Assembly: GCA_947625805.1 (NCBI GenBank)
Contig: CANQPT010000006.1
Span: forward strand, 1 to 61,808
Reading direction: 5' to 3'
Source of the DNA: an uncultured Clostridia bacterium
GTDB lineage: Bacteria > Bacillota > Clostridia > Oscillospirales > CAG-272
DNA length: 61,808 nt
Shown here in pieces: positions 279 through 11,999 of this stretch. Numbering within the stretch: the first letter of the stretch is position 1; each line of letters starts with the position of its first letter. The position numbers and the translations under genes are program-made. The notes under the pieces were generated by a model that was not told where the DNA came from, did not search any database, and saw only the letters and a list, made by a program, of their open reading frames with translations.

Positions 279-1241
279 TCAACATACACCTTGTTCAATT
301 TTATTGAGAGAATCAAGAATCGGACCATCAACATTGAAATCCAGCAGAATTGTTCGTTCGTACCCATTAACAAAAGCTCTTGACCGCTCGCGATCGATTT
401 CATAAATTCCAAAGTCTACATAGTTATCGCCCTTGTGCTTTGGATTATCCGGGTCATAAATCCATCCGACGGCTTGTCCTGCTTTTGTTGGCTTGATTCC
501 AAGACGCTCATAAACTTCATTCAGGAACAAATATCCACGAGCTTTTAATCTATCGTTCGCATAATTCTGTTCCGAACGAAGAAACATCAGATTATATTCG
601 GAATCTTTTTCCCAACCGGTACATCCGTCATCAAAGAAACGGGCATAATCACTGTATTGATTCGGATCGTCCGCAACCATCACGGTTTTCTTTACGGTTT
701 TTTCTTTACCGTTTTCATCTGTGATTTTTTCTTCGATTTCTTTGGCTTTAATATTGTACTTTAATTCTCGATCAATCTCTTCTCCAAATCGTTCGATTAC
801 GCGGTTTCTATATTCTTTGAATCCGCGATCAACGGTTGCATAAGCAGCCGCAAGAGCAATATTCCGCTTTCTGAGAATATTTGTAGACGCGAGAATACTT
901 GTTAAAGAAAGAGTTCCGAGAATGACTGAAGGAGCATAAAGCTTTGCAAATCTGATTCCGGTTTGAACATACACAATTGCCAAATCCTTTTTGGCGTCAT
1001 CCTGTGTATATTGTTCGGAAAACTTTTTGCTCTCCTGAACCTTATGGATGGGTTCCAGATCTTCTTTTGCTTTATCAAGAATTGTGCTGATTTTTGTTGT
1101 TGCTTTGCAAGCCATAACAGCACTCACAACTGTTCCGGCTACACCAAAAGCAACTAAAATTTCCGGACTGTGTTTTCTAACGCCAAAAGCTAACTTATTA
1201 AATTTTCTGCTAACTTTGGTTGCGATTTCTGTTTTTTTCAT
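279..1241 (-). CDS. DUF6353-like phage/element membrane protein (paralog 1)
   Basis: 320 aa; KHSPEILVAFGVAG motif and hydrophobic segments shared with 2744-3529 and 4832-5650. Confidence 0.7.
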   Translation of the reverse strand: MKKTEIATKVSRKFNKLAFGVRKHSPEILVAFGVAGTVVSAVMACKATTKISTILDKAKEDLEPIHKVQESKKFSEQYTQDDAKKDLAIVYVQTGIRFAKLYAPSVILGTLSLTSILASTNILRKRNIALAAAYATVDRGFKEYRNRVIERFGEEIDRELKYNIKAKEIEEKITDENGKEKTVKKTVMVADDPNQYSDYARFFDDGCTGWEKDSEYNLMFLRSEQNYANDRLKARGYLFLNEVYERLGIKPTKAGQAVGWIYDPDNPKHKGDNYVDFGIYEIDRERSRAFVNGYERTILLDFNVDGPILDSLNKIEQGVC

Positions 1242-2714: not shown

Positions 2715-2740
2715 CCATTAAATACCTTGTAAATTTTGCG
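2715..2740 (-). repeat. 26-bp interspersed motif copy 1
   Basis: minus: CGCAAAATTTACAAGGTATTTAATGG. Confidence 0.8.
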
Positions 2741-2743
2741 AAT

Positions 2744-3529
2744 TTATTTTTGGTAATCATACTGTGGAGATAAGGAATATCTGATAACAAGACAAGGTGT
2801 TCCGTCTTCCGCCAATTGTGAACTGAAATCCAAGTCAATATAACCCTTATCGATATTCCATCCAAGCTCGTCCCCAAGATCGGTTCCACTTAAGCCAATC
2901 TCGTAATAAAAATCATTTAATGAAATAAACATTTCATCTCTCATTCTGCGGTTTAACTCGTTTTCGGCTTTTTTGATCTTTTCGATATCCGATTTAAAAT
3001 ATCTTCCAGATATAGCGTCATAGCAAAGAGTATCTCCTTTCGTAGTAATAATTACTTCTCGACGTGTAACCGGGTCTTTATCAAGCTTATCCTTAGCAAT
3101 TGCGTCGCGGACGGACTGCTCTTTTTTCTCTCCGATTGTTTCAACCACTTTTTCCTGATACTCTCTAAGCGCAGATTCAGAAAGCGTATATGCGGTAGCA
3201 AGAGCGGCATTTCTTCTGAAATTCACGGAACTGGCGCCGACAAGACAAAGAATAGAAACTGAACCGACAATTGTTGACGGAATATAACATGTCCATGCCG
3301 TTTTAATCGTCTCCGGTACGGTAAGTTTTTCTTCTCCTTTTTCTTCTTTTTTCTCTTCCAATAAGAGAATTGCTTTCGGCGTAGCGCGAACCGCCATAAC
3401 AACAGTAGTAATCATTCCGGCAATTCCGATACCGGTTAAAATTTCAGGACTATGTTTTTTCATAGCGGTTTGAACACCATGAATAATGCCTTTGAATTTT
3501 GTTTTTCCCATCTCAGGATCTCCTTTCAA
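2744..3529 (-). CDS. DUF6353-like membrane protein (paralog 2; probable start MGKTKFKG)
   Basis: KKHSPEILTGIGIAGMITTVVMAVRATPKA; same layout as the two paralogs. Confidence 0.7.
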   Translation of the reverse strand: MKGDPEMGKTKFKGIIHGVQTAMKKHSPEILTGIGIAGMITTVVMAVRATPKAILLLEEKKEEKGEEKLTVPETIKTAWTCYIPSTIVGSVSILCLVGASSVNFRRNAALATAYTLSESALREYQEKVVETIGEKKEQSVRDAIAKDKLDKDPVTRREVIITTKGDTLCYDAISGRYFKSDIEKIKKAENELNRRMRDEMFISLNDFYYEIGLSGTDLGDELGWNIDKGYIDLDFSSQLAEDGTPCLVIRYSLSPQYDYQK

Positions 3530-3538
3530 AAATATAAA

Positions 3539-3558
3539 CCGCCCACAAGGGGCGGCGA
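3539..3558 (-). terminator. intrinsic terminator
   Basis: CCGCCCCTTGTGGGCGG then TTTATATTTTT on minus strand. Confidence 0.6.
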
Positions 3559-3559
3559 T

Positions 3560-4267
3560 TTAATCAACCAACCAGAAAGCCGGACGAACGCCACAAGTGC
3601 TGGGCGCGCCGGCGTAGAGCGCACCACCATAGTTGTCCACAAAAGCGAAATTGGACGAAGAGACCGATTTTTTGGTAGCATTTTTAAGCCAGTACCATCC
3701 GTATTCATCGTTATAGTCGGCAACACGATTTTTTCTTTTCTTCATCAAAGGTAGTTGCTCATCGTTATCCGGTTCTAAAACTTCTTTGTACCAGTCATCA
3801 TGACCAAACATCTGACCGTATGTAGGAATCGTCAAATCTCTTATTTTTTCCTTCATTTCTCTTGGAAACGCGGGCCATAATTTTTCTTGCAGCCACCGAT
3901 TAAGATATGAATTATCAAAGCCGCCTTTATTAGTATTGTCTTTATTCATTTTTTCACTTGCAACACAATCGTCAAAGATAAATAAAGTACGATCGCCGTC
4001 ATGCTTTTGTGCCGTTGCTGTAAATTCCCCAAAGCCTGTAAGAGAAATAGATATTTGATCGCCTATTTTGTATCGTGTATTCTCTGATTTATAAGTCGGC
4101 GTATCAATTTTAATATCCAGATCGTTCGGAACAACAATCAGGTCGCAATACACCGGCAACACGACCGTTCCGGTTACACGCTGCATGGCAATAGAAGAAT
4201 ATAAATCCTCCATTTGCTTTGGATTTAAGTTAATCATAGATCTCACAACCAACAATTCTTTGCTCAT
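3560..4267 (-). CDS. DUF6273-like protein
   Basis: FDNSYLNRWLQEKLWPAFP...YGWYWLKNATKKSVSSSNFAFVDNYGGALYAGAPSTCGVRPAFWLVD. Confidence 0.65.
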   Translation of the reverse strand: MSKELLVVRSMINLNPKQMEDLYSSIAMQRVTGTVVLPVYCDLIVVPNDLDIKIDTPTYKSENTRYKIGDQISISLTGFGEFTATAQKHDGDRTLFIFDDCVASEKMNKDNTNKGGFDNSYLNRWLQEKLWPAFPREMKEKIRDLTIPTYGQMFGHDDWYKEVLEPDNDEQLPLMKKRKNRVADYNDEYGWYWLKNATKKSVSSSNFAFVDNYGGALYAGAPSTCGVRPAFWLVD

Positions 4268-4287
4268 TTTTAGTCTCCTTTCGGTAT

Positions 4288-4575
4288 TTATAATATTTCG
4301 AGAATATTTTCGGCTGTTTCTTTTGCAACCGAAAAACGAAAACAAATATCAGAATCGTCTGTCCACGCTGAGTAAATCATCATCTTGAATATAAATTCTT
4401 CTATGATTTCATCTGCTGAGCGTAACGGGTGATCCATAATGGATTCGAGTATTTCGGTTGCAGCCCATCTTGCATAGCTTCTTTCTTCAAAATATACCGT
4501 AGGCCAAGTATATTTTGGGCCAAATAGGTTTGTTTCGATGTACTTCAGAATGGTTTGAATGGCTGCATCATTCAT
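4288..4575 (-). CDS. phage/element hypothetical protein
   Basis: 95-aa ORF in the minus-strand gene run. Confidence 0.55.
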   Translation of the reverse strand: MNDAAIQTILKYIETNLFGPKYTWPTVYFEERSYARWAATEILESIMDHPLRSADEIIEEFIFKMMIYSAWTDDSDICFRFSVAKETAENILEIL

Positions 4576-4597
4576 AATTTGCCTCGCAAAAAGGAAA

Positions 4598-4616
4598 GAG
4601 TCCCTGTTCAGGACTC
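4598..4616 (-). terminator. GAGTCC/GGACTC hairpin overlapping the stop codon of the 4608-4784 ORF
   Basis: GAGTCCTGAACAGGGACTC then TTTCCTTTTT on minus strand. Confidence 0.65.
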
Positions 4617-4784
4617 CTCCTCTTCTTCATTTTCTCCGAGTCGTTCGGCAAGCGCCTCGTCAATTTTCTCCTCGATTTCTTCTTCCATTTTCTTTTCGTT
4701 TACCCAATCGGATAAGAGCGTTGCTCCGATTCCGATAATGGTAGCCGCAAAGCCAATGAGTTTAATCACTGTTTTATTGCCCAT
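4608..4784 (-). CDS. 58-aa membrane-anchored small protein MGNKTVIKLIGFAATIIGIGATLLSDWVNEKKMEEEIEEKIDEALAERLGENEEEEES
   Basis: AAAGGAGG-N7-ATG; hydrophobic N-terminus; not in ORF track (<60 aa). Confidence 0.65.
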   Translation of the reverse strand: MGNKTVIKLIGFAATIIGIGATLLSDWVNEKKMEEEIEEKIDEALAERLGENEEEEES

Positions 4785-4802
4785 GGTGCATGACCTCCTT
4801 TC

Positions 4803-4828
4803 TCATAATACACATTGCAATTTTTGCG
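4803..4828 (-). repeat. 26-bp interspersed motif copy 2
   Basis: minus: CGCAAAAATTGCAATGTGTATTATGA. Confidence 0.8.
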
Positions 4829-4831
4829 TTT

Positions 4832-5650
4832 TTAAATATCATTCAACCATTCTGCGGTAGGCTCAAAAACCATGTCGATAATGAATATCTCCAATCCGTC
4901 ATCCAAAGTGATTTTGTGATGATTAAAGTCAATCCAATAAATATCACCGTTACAGCATGACCAACCAACCTCATTTCCGATATCCGTTTTTTCAAGACCA
5001 AGAAAATCATAAAAATCGTTTAATGAAATAACGCCATTAAACATAAAATTGCGATTTAGATGATATTCTGCTTGAATTACCTTGCTTATGCTTGTTTCAA
5101 AATATCTCCCGGAATAGCTGTCATAAAACACCCTTGTTATTTCCGGTTCCATTCCGCATTCAAAGTCGAGCGTGGACCCCATTAAACCAGGACATATTAT
5201 ATGAGTATCAGAGCACTTTTCTTTAGCAATGGAATCAATAATCGCATTATGTGCTTCTTCTCCGTACAATTCTTTTAGTTTTGATTTGTACTTTCGATAG
5301 GACTGGTCCACAAATGCGTATGCACTTATCAAAGAAGCCTGCTGTCGTTTGTTTAATATATTTGCTCCAAATATACAGAATAACGTAGCCGTTCCGGTTA
5401 TCACGCTTGGAATATAACATTTCCAGCATGATAATACGGCTTCTTTTTTTGTAAATGCATTTGAATCGCCGTCATGATTCTTTTTGCTGTCTTCTTTGAT
5501 TAGCAAAAGCGCTTTTGGCGTCGCTCTTACTGCAAGAACCGCCGTTGCAATAACTCCGGCAGCTCCGATAAAAGTTAAAATAGTCGGGGAGGATTTTTGA
5601 AGCCATCGTCGTGACTTCTTAAAGTTAGGCGTTCTTTTTGGGGATTTCAT
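4832..5650 (-). CDS. DUF6353-like membrane protein (paralog 3; start MKSPKRTPNF)
   Basis: KSSPTILTFIGAAGVIATAVLAVRATPKALLLIKE; annotated ORF extends upstream into the tRNA-like element, which is probably not coding. Confidence 0.7.
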   Translation of the reverse strand: MKSPKRTPNFKKSRRWLQKSSPTILTFIGAAGVIATAVLAVRATPKALLLIKEDSKKNHDGDSNAFTKKEAVLSCWKCYIPSVITGTATLFCIFGANILNKRQQASLISAYAFVDQSYRKYKSKLKELYGEEAHNAIIDSIAKEKCSDTHIICPGLMGSTLDFECGMEPEITRVFYDSYSGRYFETSISKVIQAEYHLNRNFMFNGVISLNDFYDFLGLEKTDIGNEVGWSCCNGDIYWIDFNHHKITLDDGLEIFIIDMVFEPTAEWLNDI

Positions 5651-5685
5651 TTTGCTCTTTCTCCTTTCGGTGATAAAAAAATAAA

Positions 5686-5761
5686 GAGAGACAGTTATGG
5701 GGGTCGAACCCATATCACAGCTTCCTTCCGATTTTGGCCGGAGCACAAGCTACTGTCTCTC
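5686..5761 (-). ncRNA. 76-nt tRNA-like RNA, apparently lacking a D-arm
   Basis: minus: GAGAGACAGT...ACTGTCTCTC 10-bp closing stem; canonical-looking T-arm TATGGG-TTCGACC-CCCATA; long arm AGCTT/AAGCT + TCCG/CGGA; followed by TTTATTTTTTT. Confidence 0.55.
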
Positions 5762-5786
5762 CATAATATAACTTGTAAATTTTGCG
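5761..5786 (-). repeat. 26-bp interspersed motif copy 3
   Basis: minus: CGCAAAATTTACAAGTTATATTATGG. Confidence 0.85.
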
Positions 5787-5795
5787 AAAAAGGAA

Positions 5796-5813
5796 GAGTC
5801 CCTGTTAGGACTC
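5796..5813 (-). terminator. GAGTCC/GGACTC hairpin overlapping the stop codon of the 5805-5987 ORF
   Basis: GAGTCCTAACAGGGACTC then TTCCTTTTT on minus strand. Confidence 0.7.
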
Positions 5814-5987
5814 CTCTCTTCTTTTAATCGTAATTTTAATTTCTTCACCTTCGATGATTGCTTCGAGTTTAAACTTTTCAGGATTGTCAATAACCTCTTT
5901 TAAAATGGATTTTTTCGTTTTCTGCTTCTTCTTAAAGCATAAATTCGAAACGTCCATTTTATCTATGATTTTACTGATGATTCCCAT
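5805..5987 (-). CDS. small basic protein
   Basis: 60 aa, AAAGGAG upstream, C-terminus RREES encoded by the terminator stem. Confidence 0.55.
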   Translation of the reverse strand: MGIISKIIDKMDVSNLCFKKKQKTKKSILKEVIDNPEKFKLEAIIEGEEIKITIKRREES

Positions 5988-6020
5988 AATCGTTATGTTC
6001 TCCTTTCAAAAATCATTTTT

Positions 6021-6046
6021 CCATAAGAGAACCTGTATTTTTTGCG
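6021..6046 (-). repeat. 26-bp interspersed motif copy 4
   Basis: minus: CGCAAAAAATACAGGTTCTCTTATGG. Confidence 0.8.
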
Positions 6047-6406
6047 TTAAATATCTTTCCTATCAAAGACCGTCTCCCAGCGCTGTTTTTGTATCGGCTT
6101 CATTTTTAACGCCCACATGATTTGTCGCACCGTAACGGTCGGATATAACCCGTCCGTACACATTCCGGCTCTTAAATCAAAATATTTTTTAAATTCTGGA
6201 TGTAAATATAAAGCATCCGTAATCCATGGATCAACCTCGCTCCACCATGTACTTTTTGTTTCCTCATCAAATCTTTGCTGAATGACAGCCAATCCTTTAT
6301 CGCCAATTTCAAATAACGTGCAGCTATTGTATACTGGGTGCTCGCAAATATAAAGTCGTCCGTACATAGATAAATAGATTTGAGGCTTTTCAAAATGGTA
6401 TCGCAT
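6047..6406 (-). CDS. phage/element hypothetical protein (start MRYHFEKPQ)
   Basis: TTAGGAGATATATTATG start; stop abuts motif copy 4. Confidence 0.6.
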   Translation of the reverse strand: MRYHFEKPQIYLSMYGRLYICEHPVYNSCTLFEIGDKGLAVIQQRFDEETKSTWWSEVDPWITDALYLHPEFKKYFDLRAGMCTDGLYPTVTVRQIMWALKMKPIQKQRWETVFDRKDI

Positions 6407-6467
6407 AATATATCTCCTAAAACAAAAAGGAAAAGCCCCCGTAAGGACTTTCCCTCTCGTTGACTTT

Positions 6468-6779
6468 TTAATCGTCAAACAGTTTACACGACGATTTGCA
6501 TTGCGGATATGGTCCTCCACATGCTCTGCATCCGGCGGGAGGAATATCCCCTTCGAATGCGTTAAGTGTTTCGGGCGTCCATTCTTCCTCTTCGTCCTGA
6601 TACACATAATCCATCTCGTCTATTTCCCATTTACATGATGGACAGACATAGATATCGCATCCTCCAGTTGGATCTTCCTTTCGCTCCATCAGAGCGCCGC
6701 ATTTGTTGCAAATTGCGTGGCCGGCATTAAGATGTCTGATTAAATCCATCCCTTCCGGCTTGATAATGTCTTTGCTCAT
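6468..6779 (-). CDS. zinc-ribbon protein
   Basis: CNKCGALMERK...CDIYVCPSCKWE and CRACGGPYPQCKSSC cysteine motifs. Confidence 0.6.
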   Translation of the reverse strand: MSKDIIKPEGMDLIRHLNAGHAICNKCGALMERKEDPTGGCDIYVCPSCKWEIDEMDYVYQDEEEEWTPETLNAFEGDIPPAGCRACGGPYPQCKSSCKLFDD

Positions 6780-6868
6780 ATACTCATTATCTCCTTTTTG
6801 AAGCCGATTTTATTATACCGGGCTTCAATTATTTAGTAAAGGGGACAAGAGCCTCTTAAATCTCCTTT

Positions 6869-6894
6869 CCGTAATAGAGATTGCAAATTTTACG
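6869..6894 (-). repeat. 26-bp interspersed motif copy 5
   Basis: minus: CGTAAAATTTGCAATCTCTATTACGG. Confidence 0.75.
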
Positions 6895-6950
6895 AGCAAA
6901 AACGAAGAGACCATGTGTTTTACACGATCTCCTCGCTTTTTCAACCCGTT

Positions 6951-7334
6951 TTAACTTCTGTTTCTGAACTTAAATCGGCTGAACAAACTTTTCATTGTTC
7001 CTGAAGTGAATGTTCCGTCTTTTTCGAACTCAAATCCCTTTCTTGCCCAATGCCAAGCAAAGCCAAGCTCCGCAATAAAGATCAATACCTCTGTTCCAAG
7101 CCGAACATTTCGGAAAATAATCTCTCTTTTTAGCTGTTCACGCTTCAGTTCGTCTTCTTTTGCATGATCAAGCGTTTCCGACAGGTCTTTCTTTTCCTCA
7201 AGTTTCAGCTTGTAAAGTTTGGTTACGTCTTCCACCGCAGAAGCCTTTTCCTTTGTTCCGCTTCCAAGTCTGGATAGGTTCTTAATTTGAGCTTCCAATT
7301 CCTCCTCAAGCATTGTCTGAAGTTCGTTTTCCAT
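6951..7334 (-). CDS. phage/element hypothetical protein
   Basis: 127 aa, AAAGGAG upstream. Confidence 0.6.
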   Translation of the reverse strand: MENELQTMLEEELEAQIKNLSRLGSGTKEKASAVEDVTKLYKLKLEEKKDLSETLDHAKEDELKREQLKREIIFRNVRLGTEVLIFIAELGFAWHWARKGFEFEKDGTFTSGTMKSLFSRFKFRNRS

Positions 7335-7372
7335 TTTACTGTTCTCCTTTCAAAAATTTTTAAATGGGTTTC

Positions 7373-7398
7373 CCATAAAAGCGTCTGTTATTTCTGCG
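7373..7398 (-). repeat. 26-bp interspersed motif copy 6 (overlaps stop of 7388-7609)
   Basis: minus: CGCAGAAATAACAGACGCTTTTATGG. Confidence 0.75.
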
Positions 7399-7609
7399 AA
7401 ATATAATTCTGGATATTTACCTTCAAAATAACATATTTTTTCTTTAAGACTTCACTTAATTTCTTCTCCATTTCCAAAAATAAATAAGGTTGATCGTCCG
7501 GATCAGACTGATCAACCCTTAAAGAACCTGTGATGTGCTTTCGAAACCCAATTGTTGTAATTATGATGCCAATAAGTATCCCAACCACAAATATAATTAC
7601 TTCAACCAT
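7388..7609 (-). CDS. small phage membrane protein (MVEVIIFVVGILIG...LRVDQSDPDDQPYLFLEM)
   Basis: N-terminal TM plus LRVDxSDPDDxPYLFLE signature seen in Bacillota phage small proteins. Confidence 0.7.
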   Translation of the reverse strand: MVEVIIFVVGILIGIIITTIGFRKHITGSLRVDQSDPDDQPYLFLEMEKKLSEVLKKKYVILKVNIQNYISQK

Positions 7610-7716
7610 AACTGACCCCTTTCAAAAACATTTTTCTGAAAATCCAACCCGGGATTTTTTCAGATATCAATATACCACATTTTTCTGTCACCTGCCTACG
7701 GAAAATATAAAAGAAA

Positions 7717-7732
7717 GAGTCCTTTCGGACTC
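7717..7732 (-). terminator. GAGTCC/GGACTC hairpin terminator
   Basis: GAGTCCGAAAGGACTC then TTTCTTTTAT on minus strand. Confidence 0.65.
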
Positions 7733-7745
7733 AATCCTTTTTGGG

Positions 7746-7982
7746 TTATAGTTTACTAAGGTATACATTACCGTCACGAATAAATACTTTGATCGGCCGC
7801 TTTGACCTTTTGACTGCAACACGCATACAGTTTGCACAGACTATGTAAGATTTGTAATCATGCTCGCTGAGATCGATTCGTACGAACTCGGCGTTTGAAT
7901 TTACAAATTCCTCAATAAAATCCTGCAAATTATGTCTGCTTGCTCGTCTTTTGGGAATGCTGTCAACCGGTGTAAGTTTCAT
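7746..7982 (-). CDS. phage/element hypothetical protein (start MKLTPVDSIPK)
   Basis: CGAAAGGAG upstream of ATG. Confidence 0.55.
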   Translation of the reverse strand: MKLTPVDSIPKRRASRHNLQDFIEEFVNSNAEFVRIDLSEHDYKSYIVCANCMRVAVKRSKRPIKVFIRDGNVYLSKL

Positions 7983-8015
7983 GATTTTTAACTCCTTTCG
8001 GGTATAAAATATTTC

Positions 8016-8041
8016 CCATAAAAGAAGTTGTAAATACCGCG
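8016..8041 (-). repeat. 26-bp interspersed motif copy 7
   Basis: minus: CGCGGTATTTACAACTTCTTTTATGG. Confidence 0.75.
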
Positions 8042-8044
8042 CCG

Positions 8045-8248
8045 TTATTTGCTCTCGTCTTCGTAAACGGTTTTCTTTCTTAAATCTCCCCAGCCGATAA
8101 ACCGATCCGTTCTGCAAATCGGACAATAGAACTTACTGATTTTATTACCCATATCAACAAGTTCGTTTGGATTGGCTTCTAATCGTGCTCCGCAATCAGG
8201 ACAATTGAATCGATATACCTTTTTAACAGCTTTATTGATGATTTTCAT
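8045..8248 (-). CDS. zinc-ribbon protein
   Basis: CPDCGARLE...FYCPICRTDRF. Confidence 0.6.
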   Translation of the reverse strand: MKIINKAVKKVYRFNCPDCGARLEANPNELVDMGNKISKFYCPICRTDRFIGWGDLRKKTVYEDESK

Positions 8249-8259
8249 ATCTGTTCACC

Positions 8260-8679
8260 TTATCCTCTCGTTTTATTCAGTAACCAGAAGAATTTTCTAT
8301 ACCGGTCATAATAAGTGTCTTTACAGCAGGGGATTTCTAATCTAAGTTTAAGGCATTCAAAAGAAATTCCTTCCGTAACCGCTCTTAACAGGTACTCTGC
8401 AAGCTCTGGATCAGCTCCTATAGCCGCCTGTTCTACGAGCTTCATTCGGTCAAGATAATATAATCTTGCCTCGGCACATTTTTCTACCGGACTGCTGATG
8501 TTTCTGGTTTTGGAAAACATAGCCAAATCCGCCGGTCTGGTTGCTAAGCTGTCCAAAGAAGCATAGGCTTTCTTCCAAATCGGATATTGAAGGCAAAAAT
8601 GCTTCAATTCATAGTACCGGTGTTTTTCTATCCAGTATTTGCTTTTATCAGACAATTCCGGTCGTATCGTCGTACTCAT
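8260..8679 (-). CDS. phage/element hypothetical, possibly an ArpU/RinA-like regulator
   Basis: start MSTTIRPELSDK with AAAGGAG; C-terminal CCKDTYYDRYRKFFWLLNK. Confidence 0.5.
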   Translation of the reverse strand: MSTTIRPELSDKSKYWIEKHRYYELKHFCLQYPIWKKAYASLDSLATRPADLAMFSKTRNISSPVEKCAEARLYYLDRMKLVEQAAIGADPELAEYLLRAVTEGISFECLKLRLEIPCCKDTYYDRYRKFFWLLNKTRG

Positions 8680-8927
8680 TACCGTTTCTCTCCTTTCCAA
8701 ATATATCCGGTTTCTTCATAGAGAAGCTTTGGCGAAATATAAAAGTTAATTCGTCCATACTTTGAGTTCATTTCCTCAATCTTCGTAACCAGCTTTCCGT
8801 TTCTGGTGGCCTTTCCAATCGGCAGCCATCCGGATATAATGCCCGCTCTTACCCAAGATGCATCTTTACCGTAAACTCTTGCCGCTACAGAGACTGGAAC
8901 CGAACCGTTTGCAAATTTTTCGTCCAT
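8679..8927 (-). CDS. excisionase-like / HTH DNA-binding small protein
   Basis: VPVSVAARVYGKDASWVRAGIISGWLPIG reads like an HTH; overlaps next gene (TAATG). Confidence 0.5.
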   Translation of the reverse strand: MDEKFANGSVPVSVAARVYGKDASWVRAGIISGWLPIGKATRNGKLVTKIEEMNSKYGRINFYISPKLLYEETGYIWKGEKR

Positions 8928-9014
8928 CTACGTTTACCTCCTTTTTGCGGCTATTCTAAATTAAAAACTGCTTTTAGTAAAAACAACCTGAGTGAAAAAT
9001 CAAAAAAAGAAAAA

Positions 9015-9034
9015 GAGTCCTTTTTTCAGGACTC
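9015..9034 (-). terminator. GAGTCC/GGACTC hairpin overlapping the stop codon of the 9026-9199 ORF
   Basis: GAGTCCTGAAAAAAGGACTC then TTTTTCTTTTTTT on minus strand. Confidence 0.7.
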
Positions 9035-9199
9035 CTCCTCTTTCTTAAACCAATCTTCGAGTTTTTGTTTCAGTTCCGATAGACTGTTTGAAAATGTGCT
9101 TCCTTCTCTCCATCCTTTTTGGTACTCGTGCTTTCCGTAAAGCTGAATACCTCCGAGAAGCAGAGAGGCAAATATCAATTCTCCAACAAATCGTTTCAC
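9026..9199 (-). CDS. 57-aa small protein (M)KRFVGELIFASLLLGGIQLYGKHEYQKGWREGSTFSNSLSELKQKLEDWFKKEEES
   Basis: GTG start coupled to upstream stop (TAAGTGA), AAAGGAGG upstream; not in ORF track. Confidence 0.6.
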   Translation of the reverse strand: MKRFVGELIFASLLLGGIQLYGKHEYQKGWREGSTFSNSLSELKQKLEDWFKKEEES

Positions 9200-9543
9200 T
9201 TAAAACAACCTCCTTTAGAATTTTGTTTCCATAAAAGAAGTTGTGATTTTTGCGCCGTCCAACGAAGCATAGTCATTTCACAAGGATAATCTTCATATCC
9301 GTATGTATTCGGCGTAATAAATCCTTCCAAAACGCCGAGTATCATTTCCATTTCATATTGCTTGTAAGGAAATATAAATTTAGGAAGTTCTCTGTGAACA
9401 TGATTGCATTTTTCACATTTCATCCGTCGGATTTTAATCCACTTGGTAGCACGACCTTTTGTTCGTACGACTCTTTTTACACTGTCGTAATATTTTAAAG
9501 GACCGCCGCAAAGAGGACACTCAGACATATTCTTTGCAATCAT
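9196..9543 (-). CDS. DUF6431-like zinc-binding protein
   Basis: CPLCGGPLKYYDSVKRVVR...MKCEKCNHVHRELPKFIFPYKQYE. Confidence 0.65.
   Translation of the reverse strand: MIAKNMSECPLCGGPLKYYDSVKRVVRTKGRATKWIKIRRMKCEKCNHVHRELPKFIFPYKQYEMEMILGVLEGFITPNTYGYEDYPCEMTMLRWTAQKSQLLLWKQNSKGGCFK
9229..9254 (-). repeat. 26-bp interspersed motif copy 8 (inside the 3' end of the DUF6431-like ORF)
   Basis: minus: CGCAAAAATCACAACTTCTTTTATGG. Confidence 0.8.
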
Positions 9544-9570
9544 GATCATCCCTTCTAAAAATAATTTCAA

Positions 9571-9593
9571 TGTAGGAGTTGACAATTCCTACA
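9571..9593. promoter_or_regulatory. inverted-repeat operator candidate between divergent genes
   Basis: TGTAGGA-GTTGACAAT-TCCTACA. Confidence 0.6.
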
Positions 9594-9607
9594 CTATTAT
9601 ATATAAT
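9579..9607 (+). promoter_or_regulatory. consensus sigma-A promoter for integrase
   Basis: TTGACA-17 bp-TATAAT. Confidence 0.8.
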
Positions 9608-9641
9608 AATAGGCGGAAATTCAATAGAAGGTGATGAACAA

Positions 9642-10880
9642 ATGCTTATTCAATGTCCGGAATGCGAGCTTCAAGTAAGCGATAAAGCTACATATTGCCC
9701 GCATTGCGGTTATCCGATGCAGCCAAATGTCAAACAAAGAAAACCTCGCAAATCCAACAAACATAGAAGATTACCAAACGGATTTGGTCAAATAAGCGAG
9801 ATTAAAAATCGAAACTTACGGAATCCGTTTCGAGCAATGGTTACGGTCGGAAAAACTCCTGATGGCAAACCGATTTGTAAGCCTTTGAAACCTGAATCAT
9901 ATTTTCCAACTTATAATGAAGCGTACGCTGCTCTCGTTGAATATAACAAAAATCCTTATGATTTGGGGCCGGCTATTACTGTAAAAGAACTTTATGAAAA
10001 ATGGTCAGAAGAGTATTTTAAAACTCTTAAATCGGATTCAAGCGCAAGAGCGGTTACATCTGCATGGGCGTATTGCTCCAGTGTATATAATATGCGTGTA
10101 ATGGATATACGAGCCAGACATATTAAAGGGTGTATGGAGGAAGGAACGGCAACAGTAAGAGGAGTAGAGCAACATCCGAGCGCATCTATGAAAAACAAAA
10201 TCAAGTCGCTTTTTAATCTGATGTTGGATTACGCTCTGGAATATGAATTGGTTGATCGTAACTATTCCCGTACGTTTAATTTGTCAGAAGATACGATCAA
10301 AGAAATCGTTACAGTTAAAAAAGGACATATTGCCTTTACCGATGATGAAATATCATTGCTTTGGCAGCATGTCCATGATAAGCGATTTGTAGATGCCATT
10401 CTTATTCAATGCTATTCCGGATGGCGTCCGCAAGAGCTTGGACTAATTGAACTCGCTAATGTTGATCTTGAAAACTGGACTTTCAAAGGCGGTATGAAAA
10501 CGGATGCGGGAACGGATAGAGTCGTTCCCATTCATTCAAAAATAAAACCCCTTGTTCTTCAAAAATATAAAGAAGCTGAAGAACTGGGGAGTAAATATCT
10601 TTTCAATTGCTGCGATCCAGATAATAAACGAAAATCGATAGCCTTTACTTACAATCGCTATCAAAAAGGATTTACAAGAATTCGAGAGGAATTGAATCTT
10701 AATCCGGAACATAGACCGCATGACGGAAGAACACATTTTGTAACTGCGGCTAAAAAGAATGGTGTGGACGAATATGCCATAAAATATATGGTCGGTCATA
10801 AAATTTCAGATATCACAGAAAAAGTTTACACAAAAAGAGAATTCGAATGGCTCCGTGAAGAAATCGAAAAAATAAAATAG
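9642..10880 (+). CDS. int: tyrosine recombinase/integrase with N-terminal zinc ribbon
   Basis: CPECELQVSDKATYCPHCG then catalytic GWRPQEL, HDGRTHFVT, GHK, VYTKREF. Confidence 0.9.
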   Translation: MLIQCPECELQVSDKATYCPHCGYPMQPNVKQRKPRKSNKHRRLPNGFGQISEIKNRNLRNPFRAMVTVGKTPDGKPICKPLKPESYFPTYNEAYAALVEYNKNPYDLGPAITVKELYEKWSEEYFKTLKSDSSARAVTSAWAYCSSVYNMRVMDIRARHIKGCMEEGTATVRGVEQHPSASMKNKIKSLFNLMLDYALEYELVDRNYSRTFNLSEDTIKEIVTVKKGHIAFTDDEISLLWQHVHDKRFVDAILIQCYSGWRPQELGLIELANVDLENWTFKGGMKTDAGTDRVVPIHSKIKPLVLQKYKEAEELGSKYLFNCCDPDNKRKSIAFTYNRYQKGFTRIREELNLNPEHRPHDGRTHFVTAAKKNGVDEYAIKYMVGHKISDITEKVYTKREFEWLREEIEKIK

Positions 10881-10963
10881 AGTGTAAAAATAGTGGTATA
10901 GGAGCGGTGCAGGAATAATGCACGATTTACATACATTTCCCCGCATTTAACCGCTCCTAACCA

Positions 10964-10989
10964 CTTCTAAAACCCTTGTATTTTCTGCG
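10964..10989 (-). repeat. 26-bp interspersed motif copy 9, downstream of integrase (possible attachment-site region)
   Basis: minus: CGCAGAAAATACAAGGGTTTTAGAAG. Confidence 0.6.
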
Positions 10990-11710: not shown

Positions 11711-11999
11711 GCTTAATGTGCGATGATGCGGGAGATTGCGGCGCAGACAGCCGGTAACTTCCGCGGAGTATGTCCGTAAAACGGGCGAAGGCAAGAGTTG
11801 TGTATCGTAGGCATACGGTGGCTGAATGCAGTCGGCATTGACGCACCGGATGTCACGGAGGCTGCGCCCCGGCGTATGCCCCGTTTTCCTTTGAGAGGGG
11901 TTGAAACGCCCGGGAGCGTGTACACAGCCTGCCGCCTTTATGGAAGGTCCCGTGTGTCGGCGGGACACGCACAACTTTTATATAGGAGGAAAAAGCAAA
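11711..11999 (+). promoter_or_regulatory. long structured 5' leader of rpsJ (S10 operon)
   Basis: ~290 nt between predicted TSS and rpsJ with multiple GC-rich inverted repeats (e.g. GTCCCGTGTGTCGGCGGGAC). Confidence 0.5.

What the first reader, a model, noticed from the sequence alone, without database searches (positions are those of the whole stretch)
2715..10989. Nine-copy, ungapped 26-bp motif dispersed at gene borders of the integrative element
Nine segments on the minus strand align without gaps: CGCAAAATTTACAAGGTATTTAATGG (2715-2740), CGCAAAAATTGCAATGTGTATTATGA (4803-4828), CGCAAAATTTACAAGTTATATTATGG (5761-5786), CGCAAAAAATACAGGTTCTCTTATGG (6021-6046), CGTAAAATTTGCAATCTCTATTACGG (6869-6894), CGCAGAAATAACAGACGCTTTTATGG (7373-7398), CGCGGTATTTACAACTTCTTTTATGG (8016-8041), CGCAAAAATCACAACTTCTTTTATGG (9229-9254), CGCAGAAAATACAAGGGTTTTAGAAG (10964-10989). 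All share the genes' orientation. Most sit right after a stop codon or terminator and a short distance before the next Shine-Dalgarno. The right half looks like a -10 (TATTAT-GG), but no consensus TTGACA lies 17 bp upstream; instead CGCAAAA-WTTACA is conserved. This suggests an element-specific promoter (analogous to the SAS/ESAS elements of mycobacteriophages), or a recombination/processing site.
Basis: seen in the sequence. Interest (0 to 1): 0.88.

Follow-up and report, generated by a model that had tools for sequence, protein, structure and literature searches.

The report
Promoters for a phage's own RNA polymerase
Eight copies of a 26-letter DNA signal in an integrated virus are very probably start sites for an unusual RNA polymerase that this family of bacterial viruses encodes itself, and the same signal accompanies that polymerase in viruses of two distant bacterial phyla.

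Summary
The repeat is real: eight of the nine listed copies stand far above background, all on one strand. The ninth (10964-10989) is at chance level. In the 1.87 Mb host assembly the motif occurs only in this prophage arm.

The same motif (consensus CGCRAAAWWTACAnnnnCTATTATGR) occurs in hundreds of copies in related phages, nearly always on the coding strand. It is found in Faecalibacterium, Gordonia, Rhodococcus, Arthrobacter, Streptomyces, Microbacterium and Curtobacterium phages, and in a shifted form in Lactococcus phage 1706. These phages share a ~900-aa single-chain two-barrel RNA polymerase (PHROG 4291, SGADFDGD, terminal HTHs). Motif and polymerase find each other: 25/33 contigs chosen by motif alone carry the polymerase; 20/21 contigs chosen by polymerase carry the motif. 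A copy lies about 0.9 kb upstream of the polymerase gene in 127/137 loci.

Shine-Dalgarno positions and tRNA 5' ends put the transcript start at the G of TATG, not 6-8 nt later, which argues against an ordinary sigma -10.

Best reading: the promoter class of a phage-encoded, sigma-independent RNA polymerase, possibly virion-carried. No published description was found in the library searched. Not shown: any transcription experiment. The polymerase gene is not in this fragmented assembly; the contig starts inside the prophage.

The parts
2715..2740 (-). motif copy 1 (predicted start of transcription at 2716), before the 80-aa ORF 2425-2667
   Evidence: PWM 31.9 bits, leave-one-out rank within top 8
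4803..4828 (-). motif copy 2 (predicted start 4804), Shine-Dalgarno GAGAAAGGAGG begins at the predicted start; before ORF 4608-4784
   Evidence: sequence
5761..5786 (-). motif copy 3 (predicted start 5762), directly after terminator 5816-5793 and directly before the tRNA-like gene
6021..6046 (-). motif copy 4 (predicted start 6022), immediately after the stop codon of ORF 6047-6607, before ORF 5805-5987
6869..6894 (-). motif copy 5 (predicted start 6870), after an imperfect terminator-like hairpin, before ORF 6468-6779
   Evidence: sequence
7373..7398 (-). motif copy 6 (predicted start 7374), overlaps the stop codon of ORF 7388-7609, before ORF 6951-7334
8016..8041 (-). motif copy 7 (predicted start 8017), just after the stop of ORF 8045-8248
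9229..9254 (-). motif copy 8 (predicted start 9230), inside the 3' end of ORF 9196-9585, before ORF 9026-9199
10964..10989 (-). claimed ninth copy: rejected, chance-level match
   Evidence: 13.1 bits, below a background site of 15.3
5793..5816 (-). intrinsic terminator directly upstream of motif copy 3
5687..5760 (-). tRNA-like gene lacking a normal D arm; relatives have tRNAs at the same place
   Evidence: ARAGORN none here; cloverleaf-like fold z -3.6; relatives
9579..9607 (+). integrase promoter of ordinary host type, TTGACA-17-TATAAT (12/12), overlapped by palindrome 9571-9593
9579..10880 (+). tyrosine integrase ORF (TTG-start as listed; a start further in is likely), opposite strand, lacks the motif
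2744..3529 (-). DUF6353 / phrog_2152 protein (two more at 279-1241 and 4832-5746), marker of this phage family

Best explanation
Each copy is a promoter for the phage's own single-chain two-barrel RNA polymerase (PHROG 4291). The polymerase, probably through its HTH domains, reads CGCRAAAWWTACA at about -24 to -12 and melts the TATTAT just before the start. It begins RNA at the G that follows (position 25, read TATG with G as +1), producing leaders such as GAAAGGAG. In the phages most genes or tRNAs of this region form their own small unit: terminator, promoter, ribosome site, gene. One further copy drives the VRR-Nuc/Cas4/RNA-polymerase cluster, which would make a positive feedback. The integrase keeps an ordinary host promoter, so host RNA polymerase would serve integration while the other genes stay silent until the phage polymerase appears. 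That could be by injection with the virion, since the phage 1706 homologue is recorded as a structural protein. Shown: the motif, its placement, strand bias, co-occurrence with the polymerase and the start-site constraint. Inferred: binding, initiation, HTH recognition, silence in the lysogen, virion delivery.
For: Motif real and element-only. In 80 related viral loci: 602 coding-strand hits, 5 opposite, 12 for the reversed control. Motif-only scan of 2.9 million contigs: 60 stretches, complement control 0. 25 of 33 records reached that way carry PHROG 4291; the other 8 all carry the family marker DUF6353, most of them contigs under 30 kb. Records chosen by polymerase: 20/21 carry the motif, one strand only, 2 control hits in all. 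Copy about 0.9 kb upstream of the polymerase in 127/137 loci; 352 plus hits, 0 minus. Phages of seven actinobacterial and Bacillota genera carry it. Phage 1706, with a 38%-identical polymerase, has 12 copies of a shifted form, all on one strand. Polymerase: SGADFDGD, HTH at both ends, fold nearest to QDE-1 and RDR2. Start site: the Shine-Dalgarno begins within 4 nt of G25 in 130/441 sites with a peak at exactly 2; the tRNA 5' end is within -2 to +8 nt of G25 in 24/25. Terminator just upstream in 208/498 sites against 71/1494 random positions. phiKZ polymerase, also two-barrel, uses TATG with G as +1 (PMC4666361).
Against: No experiment. The polymerase gene is not found in this assembly: the contig starts inside the prophage, so the link rests on relatives, including one with matching site spacing around the tRNA. 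Co-occurrence also holds for other core genes of the family, such as DUF6353. Three of 25 long DUF6353-selected contigs (55-74 kb) gave no polymerase hit. Actinophage copies carry a perfect TATAAT, so host sigma might also act there. Structural operons carry no clear copy of their own, so how late genes are read is open.
Confidence: 0.85

Rival explanations
1. Host RNA polymerase with its main sigma uses TATTAT/TATAAT as -10, helped by a phage activator bound to CGCRAAAWWTACA in place of a -35.
For: Actinophage copies read TATAAT exactly; there is no TTGACA at the right distance.
Against: A start 6-7 nt after the -10 would delete the Shine-Dalgarno in about 30% of sites and cut most linked tRNAs. 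The integrase of the same element shows what a host promoter looks like here. The motif is kept across hosts of very different G+C content and phylum.
Confidence: 0.08
2. An RNA-level element: a cleavage or stability site between genes, or a translation signal like SAS.
For: Lies between genes, close to Shine-Dalgarno sites.
Against: Often directly after an intrinsic terminator, where the upstream transcript ends; no stable structure in the motif itself (mean MFE about -2.9 kcal/mol with 10 nt more); variable distance to the ribosome site; precedes tRNAs as well.
Confidence: 0.04
3. Binding site of another conserved phage protein (repressor, replication, packaging or recombination).
For: Other core genes such as DUF6353 co-occur with the motif as well as the polymerase does.
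Against: Asymmetric motif, fixed orientation towards the gene, fixed relation to Shine-Dalgarno sites and tRNA ends, many copies at successive genes, none at the element's end once copy 9 is dropped.
Confidence: 0.03

Closest known systems
phiKZ non-virion RNA polymerase and its late promoters (PMC4666361)
   Same: Two-barrel phage polymerase; promoter core TATG with the G as +1; no host sigma needed
   Different: phiKZ uses several subunits and a short, weak motif; here a single chain of about 900 aa and a 26-bp motif with an upstream CGCRAAAWWTACA block
P23-45 virion RNA polymerase and its AT-rich promoter motif (PMC10770324)
   Same: Two-barrel phage polymerase linked to a conserved motif that is present only in phages with that polymerase
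   Different: Fused to the tape measure protein in Thermus phages; there the enzyme is part of the tail tape, here a free-standing 900-aa gene
YonO of phage SPbeta (PMC5467207)
   Same: Single-chain two-barrel phage RNA polymerase
   Different: Different PHROG (8308); profile comparison finds no overall similarity, only a weak catalytic-region match; promoter sequence was left undetermined in that paper; the SPBc2 stretch examined (60-95 kb) shows only one marginal motif-like site
SAS/ESAS and similar intergenic repeats of actinophages (PMC7302621)
   Same: Asymmetric repeats upstream of many small genes
   Different: Different sequence and position; function unknown; the passages read in that survey report no such motif for Cluster EL (phage Count), where 13 copies are found here

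Membership tests
Sigma-70/sigma-A promoter | TTGACA-like -35 about 17 bp upstream of the -10 | tested here: not met
   No conserved hexamer there in 523 sites, only T-richness; one weak overlap at 8034-8006 among chance-level matches
Sigma-70/sigma-A promoter | Start about 6-7 nt after the -10 | tested here: not met
   Indirect: Shine-Dalgarno and tRNA 5' ends lie too close in many sites
Promoter of a two-barrel phage RNA polymerase | Co-occurrence with the polymerase gene | tested here: met
Promoter of a two-barrel phage RNA polymerase | Start at or next to a TATG-like core | tested here: inconclusive
   Sequence constraints agree; no 5' ends mapped
Promoter of a two-barrel phage RNA polymerase | Specific initiation by the enzyme in vitro | not testable with these tools
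   none
Two-barrel RNA polymerase (PHROG 4291 protein) | DxDGD metal-binding motif | tested here: met
   SGADFDGD invariant in the 19-sequence alignment
Two-barrel RNA polymerase (PHROG 4291 protein) | Double-psi beta-barrel polymerase fold | tested here: met
   Moderate model (pLDDT 73.7, pTM 0.52); all PDB hits with E<=0.001 are QDE-1 or RDR2 polymerases, but global TM is only 0.2-0.3
T7-type single-subunit RNA polymerase system | PF00940 polymerase in the phage | tested here: inconclusive
   No match in 25 records, but the control did not ring either
SAS/ESAS | Conserved 13-bp sequence at the ribosome-binding site | tested here: not met
   Motif lies upstream at a variable distance from the ribosome site

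The most novel reading that the evidence does not exclude
This is the first promoter class assigned to a widespread family of self-contained single-chain two-barrel RNA polymerases. It is read without sigma or host factors, conserved across phages of Bacillota and Actinomycetota, and used by a polymerase carried in the virion, so that the infection programme does not depend on the host's transcription machinery.
Probability: 0.5. Interest if true: 0.9.

Novelty: new variant of a known kind. Interest (0 to 1): 0.8.

Why it matters
Promoters of single-chain two-barrel polymerases are largely unknown; the YonO paper left its promoter open. Here one enzyme family comes with hundreds of predicted promoters and easily grown model phages (Gordonia, Arthrobacter, Lactococcus). 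That makes sigma-free promoter recognition by a minimal relative of cellular RNA polymerases directly testable. It also offers an explanation for the 'relatively mutable host preferences' noted for this actinophage group (PMC7302621), and a ready annotation rule: the gene usually called 'HTH protein', 'hypothetical' or 'RNA-dependent RNA polymerase' is probably a transcriptase with predictable target sites.

Tried and rejected
Ninth copy 10964-10989: rejected. Exact consensus from the window in viral contigs: 0 hits, replaced by the refined consensus. T7-type polymerase: no hit, control silent. Rfam: no family at the motifs. Polymerase in the own assembly: none. PDB search by sequence: only HTH and chance matches. 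YonO by profile comparison: no overall match. Hairpin start as proof of the transcription start at the polymerase cluster: not used, because folding with upstream bases shifts the outer pairs. Literature on 1706, Pepy6, Oengus and actinophage motifs: nothing on this motif found, but subscription papers on phages 1706 and Pepy6 could not be read.
Full report
OBSERVATION. The window is the start of contig C6 of a 1.87-Mb, 74-contig assembly. Bases 1 to about 10.9 kb are one arm of a prophage: small phage genes on the minus strand (PHROG families 2152, 21980, 10740, 17256, 15866, 11237; three DUF6353 proteins) and a tyrosine integrase on the plus strand, next to the host S10 ribosomal operon. The contig begins inside the prophage. 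Eight of the nine reported copies are real by leave-one-out scoring, by column-permuted matrices and by a scan of the whole assembly with up to two mismatches, which finds only these eight. The ninth scores below background.

RELATIVES. A DUF6353 query found 80 related viral loci. With the eight-site matrix they hold 602 hits on the coding strand, 5 on the other and 12 for the reversed matrix. 473 distinct sites give a consensus CGC(G/A)AAAWWTACAnnnnCTATTATG(A/G), with C1, G2, C3, C12, A13, T21, A23, T24 and G25 at 96% or more. Faecalibacterium phage FP_oengus has 15 sites and Gordonia phage Crocheter 8. Rhodococcus ReqiPepy6 has 16, Arthrobacter Mudcat 7, Streptomyces Rima 13 and RosaAsantewaa 6, Microbacterium Count 13, Curtobacterium AddiRose 4 and the oral contig89 6, all on one strand with no control hits. 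Lactococcus phage 1706 has 12 copies of CACAWGTTTTACAWnnnCTATAGTAG, all on one strand. Its polymerase is only 38% identical to Crocheter's, so the motif appears to have shifted with the enzyme.

THE POLYMERASE. FP_oengus carries a 'putative RNA polymerase', and Crocheter gp90 is its homologue. Both match PHROG 4291 over full length, have SGADFDGD and N- and C-terminal HTH domains, the latter resembling sigma region 4 in the FP_oengus protein. The predicted structure (pLDDT 73.7, pTM 0.52) finds only QDE-1 and RDR2 two-barrel polymerases among PDB hits with E<=0.001, with low global TM. YonO belongs to another PHROG and is not matched overall. The 1706 homologue gp75 is recorded as a structural protein, which suggests, but does not prove, packaging in the virion.

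CO-OCCURRENCE, TESTED FROM THREE SIDES. Contigs picked by DUF6353: 22 of 25 hold the polymerase. Contigs picked by the motif alone out of 2.9 million: 60 stretches against 0 for the complement control; 25 of 33 records hold the polymerase, and the remaining eight, five of them under 30 kb, all carry DUF6353. Contigs picked by the polymerase: 20 of 21 hold the motif on one strand, with 2 control hits in total. In the phage collection the polymerase (250 records) and DUF6353 (248) occur in the same host genera. In 127 of 137 polymerase loci a motif copy lies 0.83-1.4 kb upstream of the polymerase start, mostly near 0.88 kb; annotated relatives have VRR-Nuc and Cas4 genes in this interval.

WHERE TRANSCRIPTION STARTS. 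Among 441 sites with a recognisable Shine-Dalgarno and start codon, the Shine-Dalgarno begins at G25 plus 0-4 in 130, with a sharp peak of 81 at +2 and none at +6 or +7. Of 37 distinct tRNA genes 25 have the motif upstream, and 24 of these begin within -2 to +8 nt of G25, most at +2 or +3. A sigma-type start at position 31 would destroy these ribosome sites and tRNA acceptor stems; a start at G25 keeps them. Position 25 is G in 96% of sites, and positions 26-28 are mostly purines. phiKZ polymerase starts at the G of TATG (PMC4666361), so the same rule is known for another two-barrel phage enzyme. Terminator-like hairpins with a T tract lie within 70 nt upstream in 208 of 498 sites, against 71 of 1494 random positions and 21 of 498 just downstream. 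The typical unit is therefore terminator, motif, ribosome site, gene.

CONTRAST WITHIN THE ELEMENT. The integrase has a perfect TTGACA-17-TATAAT promoter (12 of 12), overlapped by a palindrome. An ordinary host promoter and the phage motif thus coexist in one arm, on opposite strands.

MODEL. The phage polymerase recognises the motif and starts at G25. In the lysogen these genes would be silent for lack of polymerase, while host RNA polymerase reads the integrase. On infection or induction the polymerase, injected or newly made, would read the small-gene region and its own cluster. Structural operons of Crocheter, Mudcat and RosaAsantewaa show no clear copy, so late genes are either read through from the polymerase cluster or use host promoters; this is open. 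Binding, initiation, HTH recognition, silence in the lysogen and virion delivery are inferences.

LIMITS. No expression data exist here. The polymerase gene was not found in this assembly, and the complete relatives supply the link; relative G003 has the matching spacing of sites around the tRNA and carries the polymerase. Three long contigs with DUF6353 gave no polymerase hit. Co-occurrence alone cannot separate the polymerase from other core genes; the promoter anatomy is what favours the polymerase.

NOVELTY. Promoter-polymerase pairs of two-barrel phage enzymes are a known kind (phiKZ, P23-45). This motif and its link to PHROG 4291 were not found in the papers searched, and the YonO paper states that its promoter remained to be determined. 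It is rated a new variant of a known kind with high interest.

Noticed in passing
L207:9077-9129, L294:9046-9098 and about 100 further polymerase loci: The transcript predicted from the motif in front of the VRR-Nuc/Cas4/polymerase cluster begins with a strong hairpin (GAAGAGAGAGG..TAAAA..GCC..TTCTCTTTT with a T tract) opening within 4 nt of the start in 83% of leaders against 23% at other sites. It could be an attenuator or a 5' stabiliser.
   Followed up: partly
window 5687-5760 (-): tRNA-like gene with an 8-bp acceptor stem and a normal T arm but no proper D arm; ARAGORN rejects it, while relatives have tRNAs, often of odd anticodon loop, at the same place right after the motif.
   Followed up: partly
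window 9571-9607 (+): Integrase promoter with perfect sigma consensus inside the palindrome TGTAGGAGTTGACAATTCCTACA, a likely operator.
   Followed up: no
window 279-1241, 2744-3529, 4832-5746 (-): Three DUF6353 paralogues in one arm; the family has 3-4 copies per phage in many relatives and occurs in the same phage genera as the polymerase, function unknown.
   Followed up: partly
G012, G016, G018, G023; L293, L335, L331, L338: Some polymerase genes match the family profile in two pieces within one open frame (insertion), and a few polymerase loci sit in assemblies labelled Bacteroidota, Burkholderiaceae or Absconditabacteria, which may be binning errors or wider host range.
   Followed up: no
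window 11715-11788 (+): S10-Clostridia ribosomal protein leader (RF03136), which places the prophage just upstream of the S10 operon.
   Followed up: no
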